64,000 bases of DNA, from NCBI GenBank assembly GCA_028829895.1, contig CM054179.1:50675391-50739390 (forward strand), read 5' to 3'. Below are positions 38,676-64,000 of the stretch, piece by piece (the first letter of the stretch is position 1; each line of letters begins with the position of its first letter). The notes beneath the pieces are model-generated. The model was not told the origin of the DNA. It did not search any database and saw only the letters and a list, made by a program, of their open reading frames with translations. The stretch comes from Sinotaia quadrata (Eukaryota; Mollusca; Gastropoda; Architaenioglossa; Viviparidae). The position numbers and the translations under genes are program-made.

Positions 38676-38737
38676 GGGAAATGCGGACTTTGAAATTCCT
38701 GTTTGTTCGATATGTGCATGATATTCGCCTGTTGGTA

Positions 38738-39050
38738 CAGTACATTGCTTGTGACAGACAAACTGTGTATCCATATGCCATTCAATTGGACTTAAGCGAA
38801 TTACAAGGGTAGAACACTCAATTGGATTGATATTGCATATTTCAGAAATTAAAGACGAGACATCTTTTGATGTCTTCAAATTAATTCCTCCTACATCGTT
38901 CAATGTAGATCTGGTGTCATTGTCTCAAGCATGGCCACATGACCCCAATATGCCAGTTAAAGAGGAGATTAAAAACAATCTTGTATGCGTGTCAGGGCAA
39001 ATGATTTCTAGTCATCAGAGAGCCCCTTTTAAACTTCACAAAACACTATA
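38738..39050 (+). pseudogene. Gene X fragment, leftmost copy
   Basis: The frame encodes TVYPYAIQLDLSEL, then, after a 1-bp deletion (CAAGGGTAG instead of CAAAGCGTAG), ISEIKDETSFDVFKLIPPTS and SLSQAWPHDPNMPVKEEI. I do not recognise this protein. Copies inside the array lack the deletion. Confidence 0.6.
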
Positions 39051-39377
39051 AACGAACAGTAGAAACCAGTCACTCCAACTGACAATTACTCATTTATTCA
39101 TCCAGATAGTAAATGGAGAGGACCGTCCTCGTGTAACCACAAAGCATTCGAAATATTCAGACGCTACAGTATGATCACACACTGCCATGGACGGGATGGG
39201 CTCCCCGACGAACCACACCTCTCCACCACCCAAAGGGGACTCAGGCAGAGGATACACTGAGTGACTGCCCAATGAGTTGCTGGATGAAATATATAGTAGG
39301 CGCCCTTTAAATCAGCATGTTGCTGTGAGAAGATTCGAAGTTTTAATATTTATTGTTGATCTTTAGAAGAAAACGAA
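39051..39377 (+). other. Linker between gene X and TTC27
   Basis: This unit segment holds no recognised protein. Positions 39,233-39,295 (AAGGGGACTCAGGCA to GATGAAATATATA) recur just after the TTC27 frame at 40,261-40,323. The TTC27 piece is thus framed by a 63-bp direct repeat. A TTTAG acceptor-like site lies just before the TTC27 ATG. Confidence 0.6.
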
Positions 39378-40292
39378 ATGGAGCTGATGATGTTAACAGG
39401 AGACAAGAATCGAAAATTACAAGGTGATGCCAACCATCCTGAAAATGTCCATTACTTTATGGATGGACAGTTTGAAGAAGTGCTACAGATGGATGCTTCA
39501 AGGAATGTGATTGGGGTGAACCTAAACAATATACAACACTTAAATGAAATAAATCAAAATGTCAAAAACACTGAATTGTATCTGTCTGATGCTTCGAATG
39601 AAGAGGATAAATCAAGAAGAGAAATGGACGTGTTGATCACCGCAGCCACATGCCTGCAGCTGTTTGTGCAAAACAACTGGCTTGGACCGGTAACACACAC
39701 CCCACCTAGTGCTTTTCTTCCCCAGCCATGGACAGAAGAAACGGTAGTGAAGGAAATGGCGTTGACATGCCTGAGTGAAGATGGAGAGCCAGTCTGTACT
39801 TTAGCTAGCCATGCTGGCTTTCTCTACTTGGCTCGCAACATTCTGCTGGATTGCAGACACCTGTGCTCGTCACTGCAGACTTGGGACTGGTGGCTGGTGC
39901 GATGCTTGTCTGTGCAGCAAACTTTGCTTGAGCAGCGCTCGCCCACTCTGGGAGCTACCATGTTGGAGAGACTTGATGATCTTTCAAAAAGGGAGTCTCT
40001 CTTGGCCTCTGATTCAAATAGGGATGTTGCTGTGTTATTTCACGTGGAAGCAGTGCGTATTTGTCAGATGTTTTGGGAGGATAAGAGGATGAGAGATCAT
40101 GTCATGCAAGGAAGGAAACTGTCTGGGTTAAAAATAGAACTTTCAGGTGCATTGGGAAAACGGATACGATTTCAACAGGATGATAAAGCTCAATTGGTGG
40201 TGAAAATTAGTCATGAGGAAGGGGAGCTTACACTTCCCAGAATGGGCCTTAGTGATCCAGAAGGGGACTCAGGCATTGGATACACTGAGTGA
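39378..40292 (+). pseudogene. TTC27: TTC27-derived 304-codon frame, unit A1
   Basis: The frame carries a run of blocks matching the N-terminal region of tetratricopeptide repeat protein 27: LQLFVQNNWLGP, FLYLARNILLDCRH, LEQRSP, VLFHVEAVRI and ELSGALGKR.RFQ. The real protein is over 800 residues; the TPR repeats that make up its C-terminal half are absent. No intron interrupts the 915 bp. The last residues (GDSGIGYTE) come from the direct repeat seen also at 39,233. This copy differs from the others by DD for ED (near residue 203) and KRIRF for KRTRF. Expression is unknown. Confidence 0.85.
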
Positions 40293-40602
40293 CTGCCCAA
40301 TGAGTTGCTGGATGAAATATATATGAGGAAATTGAGATGAAGTCTGGCGATCTGGAGGTGGATTTTGTAGAGTTTCTGATAGAACAGGAAGTGGCATTAA
40401 TCGACAGTAACTTGGGAACGAACCGTCCAAGGAGGTCGCACTCGAATTACTGATGATGACAAGTTTGACATAAATAAACATGGTTCAGACTCATGCCTGT
40501 GATTTCATCGGTTCATTTAAATATAGTAATGTAAAGACAGTGGGAAATGCCGACTTTGAAATTCCTGTTTGTTCGATATGTGCTTGATATTCCTCTGTTG
40601 GT

Positions 40603-40878
40603 ACAGTACATTACTTGTGACAGACAAACTGTATATCCACATGCCATTCATTTGGACTTAAGCGAATTACAAGGGTAGAACACTCAATTGGATTGATACT
40701 GCATATTTTAGAAATTTAGACGAGACATCTTTTGATGTCTTCAAATTAATTCCTCCTACATCGTTCAATGTAGATCTGCTGTCATTGTCTCAAGCATGGC
40801 CACATGACCCCAATATGCCAGTTAAAGAGGTGATTAAAAACAATCTTGTATGCGTGTCAAGACAAATGATTTCTAGTC
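40603..40878 (+). pseudogene. Decayed second copy of gene X, unit A1
   Basis: This is about 90 percent similar by eye to 38,738-39,017, with the same 1-bp deletion plus further changes (an internal TTTAGACG change makes another stop). It ends abruptly at TTTCTAGTC, where CTP synthase sequence begins. B1, A2 and B2 have the same at 46,776, 52,734 and 58,907. Confidence 0.7.
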
Positions 40879-41558
40879 TGGCAAAATCTACCAACAAGTT
40901 ATTCATCGGGAACGACGTGGAGACTATCTTGGCAAAACTGTTCAAGTTGTGCCACATATAACCGATGCCATATGGAATATAGAAAAACAAGTAAAATAAC
41001 TGAGACTGCTAAGCAGTAAGTATTTGTACTTGATGATGGTGGTGAAGTTGACCTTGACCTTGGGAATTATGAACGTTTTCTTGACATCACCTTACACAAA
41101 GATAACAACATCACCACTGGCAAAATCTACCAACAAGTTATTCATCGGGAACGACGTGGAGACTATCTTGGCAAAACTGTTCAAGTTGTGCCACATATAA
41201 CCGATGCCATATGGAATATAGAAAAACAAGTAAAATAACTGAGACTGCTAAGCAGTAAGTATTTGTACTTGATGATGGGAATTATGAACGTTTTCTTGAC
41301 ATCACCTTACACAAAGATAACAACATCACCACAGGCAAAATCTACCAACAAGTTATTCATCGGGAACGACGTGGAGACTATCTTGGCAAAACTGTTCAAG
41401 TTGTGCCACATATAACCGATGCCATATGGAATATAGAAAAACAAGTAAAATAACTGAGACTGCTAAGCAGTAAGTATTTGTACTTGATGATGGGAATTAT
41501 GAACGTTTTCTTGACATCACCTTACACAAAGATAACAACATCACCACTGGCAAAATCT
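40879..41558 (+). repeat. Left CTP synthase monomer block, unit A1
   Basis: Three CTP synthase-derived monomers are followed by a break at GGCAAAATCT, where fragment Y starts. The first monomer is the 239-bp form, the next two are the 215-bp form lacking 24 bp (eight codons, GEVDLDLG). A one-base variant, CACAGGC for CACTGGC, at about 41,333 is shared with unit A2 and not with B1. Confidence 0.85.
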
Positions 41559-62645: not shown

Positions 62646-62658
62646 TTTCCATCTCTAT

Positions 62659-62870
62659 GGATGAAGGAATTGTTATTCCACTTAATCCTATGATTGGGGG
62701 TCTTCGTAAATATGAAGTGCAGAAAAGACAGTCTGGTGATGTACTGACTTATATGTTGATGATTCGTCGGTTGCTTTTACCTGATGCAGGAACATACAAA
62801 TGTTATTTGCGCATTCAAGCTGTTCCTGTTGATAGTTTTCCAACTAAACTGGGGAAAATCACTGTACAAG
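62659..62870 (+). pseudogene. Immunoglobulin-domain fragment, unit B2
   Basis: Same as in the other units, ending at the GTATGT border. Confidence 0.6.
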
Positions 62871-63000
62871 GTATGTTCATCAAAAGGCAGTGGACCTGAC
62901 AAGATTTGATGTATTTATTTCTGTTTTGTTTCAGGTTGAACAATATATATATAATACTTAAACATAGCCAGCTTACTTTTCCAGTGATATTCGGTATACA

Positions 63001-63313
63001 GTACATTGCTTGTGACAGACAAACTGTGTATCCATATGCCATTCAATTGGACTTAAGCGAATTACAAAGCGTAGAACACTCAATTGGATTGATATTGCAT
63101 ATTTCAGAAATTAAAGACGAGACATCTTTTGATGTCTTCAAATTAATTCCTCCTACATCGTTCAATGTAGATCTGGTGTCATTGTCTCAAGCATGGCCAC
63201 ATGACCCCAATATGCCAGTTAAAGAGGAGATTAAAAACAATCTTGTATGCGTGTCAGGGCAAATGATTTCTAGTCATCAGAGAGCCCCTTTTAAACTTCA
63301 CAAAACACTATAA
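63001..63313 (+). pseudogene. Gene X fragment, end of unit B2
   Basis: Same open version. It leads through the linker to the next TTC27 frame. Confidence 0.6.
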
Positions 63314-63639
63314 ACGAACAGTAGAAACCAGTCACTCCAACTGACAATTACTCATTTATTCATCCAGATAGTAAATGGAGAGGACCGTCCTCGTGTAACC
63401 ACAAAGCATTCGAAATATTCAGACGCTACAGTATGATCACACACTGCCATGGACGGGATGGGCTCCCCGACGAACCACACCTCTCCACCACCCAAAGGGG
63501 ACTCAGGCAGAGGATACACTGAGTGACTGCCTAATGAGTTGCTGGATGAAATATATAGTAGGCGCCCTTTAAATCAGCATGTTGCTGTGAGAAGATTCGA
63601 AGTTTTAATATTTATTGTTGATCTTTAGAAGAAAACGAA

Positions 63640-64000
63640 ATGGAGCTGATGATGTTAACAGGAGACAAGAATCGAAAATTACAAGGTGATGCCAACCATC
63701 CTGAAAATGTCCATTACTTTATGGATGGACAGTTTGAAGAAGTGCTACAGATGGATGCTTCAAGGAATGTGATTGGGGTGAACCTAAACAATATACAACA
63801 CTTAAATGAAATAAATCAAAATGTCAAAAACACTGAATTGTATCTGTCTGATGCTTCGAATGAAGAGGATAAATCAAGAAGAGAAATGGACGTGTTGATC
63901 ACCGCAGCCACATGCCTGCAGCTGTTTGTGCAAAACAACTGGCTTGGACCGGTAACACACACCCCACCTAGTGCTTTTCTTCCCCAGCCATGGACAGAAG
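63640..64000 (+). pseudogene. TTC27: TTC27-derived frame, start of unit A3, cut by the window edge
   Basis: It carries the A-type LQGDA. It shows that the A-B alternation continues beyond the window. Confidence 0.85.

What the first reader, a model, noticed from the sequence alone, without database searches (positions are those of the whole stretch)
38676..64000. A satellite built from pieces of at least six unrelated host genes
The repeat unit is not a transposon or a simple satellite. It strings together fragments of TTC27, CTP synthase, FGAM synthase, beta-catenin, an HtrL/YibB-like protein, an Ig-domain protein and unidentified genes X and Y, and repeats the assembly more than four times. 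I know of no named element class with this content. It could be an amplified chimeric retrocopy, an integrated extrachromosomal circle, or a source of RNAs that match many housekeeping and signalling mRNAs.
Basis: partly seen in the sequence, partly recalled or inferred. Interest (0 to 1): 0.95.

Follow-up and report, generated by a model that had tools for sequence, protein, structure and literature searches.

The report
Snail array of copied host mRNAs
In a mollusc chromosome (probably a snail's), spliced copies of pieces of many ordinary genes, several from nucleotide synthesis and Wnt signalling, have been stitched together in one orientation and amplified into a tandem array of about 55 kb, which may be a by-product of reverse transcription or a source of gene-silencing RNA.

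Summary
From 38,736 the window holds 4 complete ~6-kb units and the start of a fifth; the array runs on to about 94 kb (8 complete units plus a partial one), with 0-10 substitutions between complete units. The host is a mollusc, probably a snail (unnamed 984-Mb genome). Multi-exon parent genes of the fragments exist elsewhere. 12 of 13 same-gene joins lie on GT..AG introns of the parent (random joins 3%), so TTC27, beta-catenin, CTP synthase, HtrL and PFAS pieces are copies of spliced mRNA; Ig-gene pieces keep intron sequence. 52 of 52 matches in a unit have one orientation. The array is one of 6 loci read (5 on this chromosome) with the same low-copy core, followed in the same orientation by other patchworks: PAICS, DHODH, APC, LEF/TCF, NOP53, a neurexin-like gene, more beta-catenin. 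Four of about 13 captured genes make nucleotides de novo and three are Wnt components, more than chance suggests, though counted after the fact. Best reading: a locus family that repeatedly captures reverse-transcribed host mRNA, then tandem amplification (0.7). Function is unproven; a small-RNA source against growth genes is the bold reading. 'Amplified chimeric retrocopy' is supported; 'unrelated genes' is doubtful.

The parts
28804..35074 (+). Low-copy 'core', main part; shared in blocks with gaps, order differs between loci; contains a common ~400-bp repeat
   Evidence: Blocks shared with C3:70.66, 72.84, 74.12(-), C4:96.74 Mb, mostly 85-96%; the stretch 32650-34500 has its strong matches there and at C3:58.54(-), in part C5:99.70
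36031..36857 (+). Core, second part
36858..37259 (+). Older captured pieces: geneX and PFAS
   Evidence: offset 28000
38666..38743 (+). HtrL_YibB exon-2 piece at the left edge of the array
   Evidence: HTRL 5037-5114, 96%
38736..44907 (+). Unit 1, 6172 bp
44908..50865 (+). Unit 2, 5958 bp, dissected below
50866..57038 (+). Unit 3, 6173 bp
57039..62996 (+). Unit 4, 5958 bp
62997..64000 (+). Unit 5, continues beyond the window
44930..44995 (+). PFAS (FGAM synthase) piece
44996..45239 (+). HtrL_YibB last-exon piece
   Evidence: 95%
45238..45315 (+). Ig-gene piece
45346..45465 (+). geneX piece (60 bp of the gene repeated on the other side of TTC27)
45467..46434 (+). TTC27, 8 exon pieces joined
   Evidence: 6 of 7 joins GT..AG; the seventh fits a GC..AG intron
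46434..46567 (+). geneX piece
46577..46653 (+). Ig-gene piece
   Evidence: 98.7%
46664..46782 (+). HtrL exons 1 and 2 joined
46797..47049 (+). PFAS piece then HtrL piece
47051..47729 (+). CTP synthase modules (215/239 bp) with a 45-bp linker of unknown source
47730..47854 (+). geneX-type piece (only its last 25 bp match the parent exon read; the rest matches sister locus L022)
47856..48012 (+). PFAS, two exons joined
48048..48377 (+). HtrL_YibB piece
48375..48742 (+). Beta-catenin, three exons joined
48742..49308 (+). Two further 283-bp modules: 45 bp CTPS then beta-catenin
49308..50515 (+). CTP synthase modules ending in three joined exons
50518..50856 (+). Ig-gene exon with adjoining intron sequence (intron read by eye)

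Best explanation
It is a retro-chimeric locus, one member of a small family. A low-copy core, probably the 5' part of a transcription unit (inferred), is followed by pieces of host mRNAs that reached the locus as already spliced copies (splicing shown; reverse transcription inferred from it). The pieces came in steps (inferred from identities) and lie in the orientation of the core (shown for the loci read). The simplest mechanism is that transcripts of the locus are themselves reverse transcribed, that the enzyme switches between locus RNA and host mRNA, and that the chimeric cDNA returns to the locus or a sister locus by homology (inferred). Small modules were tandemly duplicated inside, and finally the whole ~6-kb unit was amplified head to tail as 6.17- and 5.96-kb variants, very recently (shown). 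The Ig-gene pieces came from genomic DNA of a neighbouring gene.
For: 52 of 52 matches of the unit are in one orientation. Over 36.8-130.5 kb, 496 of 498 matches within the gene ranges are; the 2 others hit a stretch of the Ig locus (3726-3808 of L028 reversed) that the array-side copies of that gene lack. At 6 of 6 loci read, the core is upstream of the pieces and in the same orientation: window, C3:70.66, 72.85 and C4:96.75 on +, C3:58.54 and 74.12 on -. Pieces at sister loci: PAICS, DHODH and NOP53, APC, LEF/TCF, neurexin-like. Identities to parents differ: in the unit geneX 86-87% (one 25-bp stretch 100%), PFAS 90-100%, HtrL 93-98%, CTPS 93-100%, TTC27 95-100%, beta-catenin 97-100%. Where pieces of different genes abut, they overlap by 0-4 bases; an HtrL 3'UTR-to-5'UTR join beyond the window sits on an imperfect match TTA(T/C)GGAG. 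Inserted blocks are bordered by 60- and 37-bp repeats of the interrupted mRNA. Complete units differ by 0-10 substitutions per ~6 kb.
Against: No poly(A) tails or ordinary target-site repeats were noticed, but no systematic search was made. The Ig pieces carry intron sequence, so not everything came through mRNA. No reverse transcriptase was recognised in the core (one core frame tested against Pfam). Return by homology is not shown; independent insertions with selection for orientation would look alike. Several junctions have 9-100 bases of no assigned source. Identity differences partly reflect UTR versus coding constraint: differences fall 5, 3 and 15 on codon positions 1, 2 and 3, which also does not exclude coding constraint on the copies. 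C3:58.53 shows neither geneX nor PFAS in the 6.5 kb read, so the older pieces are not common to all loci. The gene choice is not predicted by a purely mechanical model.
Confidence: 0.7

Rival explanations
1. A piRNA- or siRNA-producing locus under selection. Transcripts antisense to the captured mRNAs are processed into small RNAs that lower beta-catenin, APC, LEF/TCF and de novo nucleotide-synthesis mRNAs in some tissue or sex; capture is as in the best explanation but kept by selection.
For: One orientation throughout, as in one-strand piRNA clusters (recalled). Four of about 13 genes are de novo nucleotide enzymes: hypergeometric P 1.2e-10 with 14 draws, 15 assumed pathway genes and 22,702 genes (gene number of the viviparid snail C. 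cathayensis from PMC10379862, abstract passage). In a pond snail and an oyster, piRNA-sized reads matching protein-coding genes carry a ping-pong signature (PMC6128900, passages).
Against: No small-RNA data. Orientation needs no selection if capture goes through locus RNA. The pathway categories were chosen after seeing the list, the pathway size is my assumption and the genes are not a random sample; HtrL, the Ig gene, the neurexin-like gene, TTC27 and NOP53 fit neither pathway. No inverted repeats of 25 bp or more in 38,700-51,100, so no hairpin siRNA source there.
Confidence: 0.17
2. A DNA transposon (Helitron or Mutator-like) captured gene fragments at the DNA level and the array is its tandem product.
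For: Such elements can carry several gene fragments (search listing and start of abstracts).
Against: Introns are removed at splice sites at 12 of 13 joins; no inverted repeats of 25 bp or more in 38,700-51,100 (a Helitron has none, so this speaks only against Mutator-like ends).
Confidence: 0.04
3. An extrachromosomal circle of a pre-existing chimera was amplified by rolling circle and reintegrated (concerns the amplification step and can be true together with the best explanation).
For: Head-to-tail units almost identical over ~49 kb; alternating long and short unit as if a dimer had been copied.
Against: Explains the amplification only. Unequal crossing-over does as well; two successive 5,958-bp units and a 6,891-bp unit near the right end fit unequal exchange.
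Confidence: 0.25
4. Assembly artefact or cDNA contamination.
For: Near-identical units are hard to assemble; no raw reads were available here.
Against: The same junctions recur in a copy a few per cent diverged about 20 kb beyond the array; sister loci on two chromosomes share core and, in 5 of 6, geneX pieces; pieces differ from parents by up to about 13%.
Confidence: 0.03

Closest known systems
Processed pseudogenes and chimeric retrogenes (PMC5408686, search listing and start of abstract only)
   Same: Spliced mRNA copies with intron-exact joins; several sources in one insert by template switching (recalled)
   Different: Here about 13 genes, apparently repeated capture into one locus family, one orientation, amplified 6-kb units, no poly(A) noticed
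Bs1 retroelement of maize, which took up segments of three host genes (PMC13317346, passages)
   Same: Successive capture of several host-gene segments
   Different: Bs1 is a retrotransposon; no retroelement protein was recognised in the core here; more genes and tandem arrays
Pack-MULE and Helitron gene-fragment carriers (search listing)
   Same: Chimeras of gene fragments
   Different: Those capture DNA; here most fragments are spliced
piRNA loci made of gene repeats such as Suppressor of Stellate, or the silkworm Fem locus (recalled)
   Same: Tandem gene-derived repeats that could target their parents
   Different: Many targets at once; no small-RNA evidence here

Membership tests
Processed (retro)copies | Introns removed at splice sites | tested here: met
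   12 of 13 joins GT..AG, control 2.95%; not met for the Ig-gene pieces
Processed (retro)copies | Poly(A) tail and target-site duplication | tested here: inconclusive
   None noticed by eye at piece ends; repeats of 37 and 60 bp flank two inserted blocks; no systematic search
LTR or LINE element with captured genes (Bs1-like) | Own reverse transcriptase or LTRs | tested here: inconclusive
   No Pfam hit for one CCHC-like frame of the core; the other frames and LTRs were not tested; a separate LINE lies upstream at about 22.8-27.7 kb
Higher-order satellite | Head-to-tail units with a higher-order period | tested here: met
   6.17/5.96-kb units, 12,130-bp period at 99.96%
One-strand piRNA cluster | Target-derived pieces in one orientation | tested here: met
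   52 of 52 in the unit, 496 of 498 over 94 kb
One-strand piRNA cluster | Small RNAs antisense to targets | not testable with these tools
   No small-RNA data
Hairpin siRNA locus | Long inverted repeats | tested here: not met
   0 pairs of 25 bp or more in 38,700-51,100; other loci not tested
Helitron or MULE carrier | DNA-level capture with introns kept | tested here: not met
   (except Ig pieces)

The most novel reading that the evidence does not exclude
A locus family that works as a modular, multi-target silencing archive: it stores spliced fragments of host mRNAs in one orientation and turns them into small RNAs that together hold down Wnt/beta-catenin signalling and de novo nucleotide synthesis, with targets added over time by reverse transcription, a CRISPR-like memory of self genes.
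Probability: 0.12. Interest if true: 0.96.

Novelty: new variant of a known kind. Interest (0 to 1): 0.8.

Why it matters
Retrocopies are normally scattered, single and without pathway preference. A low-copy locus family that keeps taking up spliced host mRNAs in one orientation, with an apparent excess of nucleotide-synthesis and Wnt genes, reveals either a route by which reverse-transcribed RNA is repeatedly returned to a locus, or a self-directed RNA-silencing system in a mollusc. Both can be tested with ordinary kinds of data (small RNA, long reads).

Tried and rejected
Simple satellite or ordinary transposon repeat: rejected, the content is exons of multi-exon genes. DNA-level capture: rejected for the spliced pieces. 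Hairpin siRNA source: no inverted repeats in the two units tested. Coding chimera: held unlikely, because frames break at many junctions; the codon-position counts (5, 3, 15) are what constrained parents alone would give but do not exclude constraint on the copies. Naming geneX by Pfam or PDB failed; a homology search placed it among molluscan genes, several with homeobox domains. The 45-bp linker of the CTPS modules was found in the fetched loci only in array relatives (L006-L008, L013, L014). Parents of APC, DHODH, LEF/TCF, NOP53 and the neurexin-like gene were not located: requests for APC, DHODH, LEF/TCF and beta-catenin 5' exons did not complete by the genome search, the other two were not asked. 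Literature searches that brought up no description of such a locus: (open-licence papers only).
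Full report
1. What is there. The window is C3:50,675,391-50,739,390 of an unnamed 984-Mb assembly in 26 contigs. Self-comparison shows head-to-tail units from 38,736 on, the 12,130-bp pair repeating at 99.96%. Reading on (positions past 64,000 continue the window numbering) gives unit starts 38,736, 44,908, 50,866, 57,039, 62,997, 69,170, 75,128, 81,086 and 87,977: 8 complete units of 6172, 5958, 6173, 5958, 6173, 5958, 5958 and 6891 bp and a partial one that ends near 94 kb. Complete units differ by 0-10 substitutions, gaps left out. 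A diverged copy with the same junctions lies at about 113-123 kb, and an intron-bearing duplicate of an Ig-type gene mixed with HtrL, PFAS and geneX pieces at 125-130 kb.

2. The organism. The 1,087-aa open exon of the gene that I call geneX (C3:20.827 Mb) has its best relative in the snail Pomacea canaliculata (57% identity over 83% of the query). Of 41 hits, 20 bear an organism name and 20 of these 20 are molluscs; 21 bear none; only the 7,986 candidates sharing most words were scored. Contigs C1 to C8 carry matches. Eight pseudochromosomes are reported for Sinotaia snails (PMC13359775, passages); that our genome is a viviparid is a guess.

3. Parents and splicing. DNA search of the own genome with one unit found exon-by-exon matches on C1 (TTC27), C6 (beta-catenin), C5 (CTP synthase), C2 (HtrL_YibB), C7 (PFAS) and in a gene on C3:50.03-50.04 Mb on the other strand (Ig-type, named by eye). 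Of 13 joins between neighbouring pieces of one gene, 12 fall on GT..AG introns: TTC27 6 of 7, beta-catenin 2 of 2, CTPS 2 of 2, HtrL 1 of 1, PFAS 1 of 1. The thirteenth, the first TTC27 join, has GC in place of GT at the donor (CAAG|GCAACT) and AG at the acceptor. Only one example of each repeated join was counted. The Ig pieces run into intron sequence, so they are genomic. The PAICS fragment of C3:72.85 Mb also joins two exons of a parent on C7:42.66 Mb (splice sites not examined).

4. One orientation. All 52 matches between the unit and its parents are sense (many are tandem copies of one another, so they are not 52 independent events). For 36.8-130.5 kb, 496 of 498 matches of at least 80% identity within the gene ranges are sense; 17 further matches outside those ranges or below 80% were left out of this count (13 sense, 4 antisense). 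The 2 antisense ones fall on a stretch of the Ig locus that the array-side copies of the gene lack and that resembles repeats. No inverted repeats of 25 bp or more occur in 38,700-51,100.

5. A family of loci. Blocks of window 28.8-37 kb, upstream of the array, are shared in mosaic order with C3:70.66, 72.84, 74.12(-) and C4:96.74 Mb. A 1.85-kb stretch has its strong matches there and at C3:58.54(-) and, in part, C5:99.70; about 400 bp of it are a common repeat (the tool scored 40 of 1,238 candidates, so low copy number rests on the ranking). At the 6 loci that I read (C5 was not read) the captured pieces lie downstream of the core and in its orientation. geneX pieces occur at 5 of 6, not in the 6.5 kb read at C3:58.53; PFAS exon pieces at the window, C3:72.85, 74.12 and C4:96.75 but not at C3:70.67 or 58.53. 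Further contents: C3:72.85, beta-catenin and ~501-bp PAICS repeats (26 copies of a 24-base word in the 20 kb of L024+L034; copies also at 72.888-72.894 Mb; 72.862-72.888 not read); C3:74.12, PAICS, DHODH three times, NOP53, and by eye beta-catenin without a Pfam hit; C3:70.67, beta-catenin 5' exons and APC repeats; C4:96.75, LEF/TCF HMG box (2lef 2.2e-24, the only hit) and an APC-like frame by eye without a Pfam hit; C3:58.53, beta-catenin in tandem (stretches of 199 and 190 bp at 100%), neurexin/CASPR-like F5/8C plus laminin G. TRIM-like pieces are by eye only (best hit 0.07). Beta-catenin pieces at C3:70.67, 72.85 and the window cover successive parts of the gene with overlaps of 31 and 47 bp, but C3:58.53 spans the first two parts in one piece, so this may reflect the splitting of one older copy.

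6. Gene set. CTPS, beta-catenin, TTC27 (name recalled; TPR in a downstream parent exon), HtrL_YibB, PFAS, Ig-type gene (by eye), geneX, PAICS, DHODH, NOP53, APC, LEF/TCF, neurexin-like: 13 genes; parents located for 8, not for APC, DHODH, NOP53, LEF/TCF and neurexin-like. Four are de novo nucleotide enzymes: P = 1.2e-10 for 14 draws, 15 pathway genes and 22,702 genes, 1.1e-9 with 25 pathway genes, 6.1e-11 for 12 draws with 15. Pathway size is my assumption, the category was chosen after the fact and the draws are not independent, so this is a strong hint, not a test. Beta-catenin, APC and LEF/TCF belong to one pathway (established knowledge).

7. How it works. Shown: spliced sources, sense orientation, shared core, tandem amplification. 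Inferred: reverse transcription of mRNA, template switching with locus RNA, return by homology. Where pieces of different genes abut they overlap by 0-4 bases, some abutments have 1-2 extra bases, and other junctions hold 9-100 bases without an assigned source. An HtrL 3'UTR-to-5'UTR join beyond the window sits on TTA(T/C)GGAG. TTC27 interrupts geneX with a 60-bp repeat, and the block from beta-catenin to PFAS interrupts HtrL with a 37-bp repeat. Identities to parents range from 86% (geneX; 78% over the longest geneX match at C3:74.12) to 100%, which argues for capture in steps, with the caution that UTR and coding pieces are not comparable. Differences of TTC27, beta-catenin and CTPS from their parents fall 5:3:15 on codon positions: expected if the parents are constrained, but no proof that the copies are not.

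8. Function. Nothing here shows expression. [quoted passage not shown] orientation alone does not prove it. I put 0.17 on a selected small-RNA source, and more on a by-product of capture and amplification.

9. Novelty. The steps have precedents (retrocopies; Bs1, PMC13317346, passages; satellites). The searches, which cover open-licence papers only, brought up no description of a core-plus-captured-cDNA family.

Noticed in passing
window 25289-27005: A LINE (about 22.8-27.7 kb) is interrupted by an insert bounded by short tandem arrays that are inverted to each other (25340-25397, 26907-26997) and holding a transposase-like frame on the minus strand (by eye); a related LINE at C3:70.68 Mb lacks the insert, and the two flanks overlap there by 9 bp, like a 9-bp target-site duplication.
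   Followed up: partly
L024, L034 (C3:72.849-72.862 Mb) and C3:72.888-72.894 Mb: ~501-bp tandem repeats of a PAICS fragment, a second array of the same kind on the same chromosome, about 44 kb if continuous; the middle was not read.
   Followed up: partly
window 21506-22010: 63-bp tandem repeat, 8.1 copies at 99%.
   Followed up: no
window 37629-38365: Open frames with a signal-peptide-like start and a glutamine-rich tail between core and array; no Pfam hit for the first.
   Followed up: no
L014 4226 (position 118226 in extended numbering): Head-to-tail join of HtrL 3'UTR to HtrL 5'UTR, shortly before an AATAAA-like word of the parent.
   Followed up: partly
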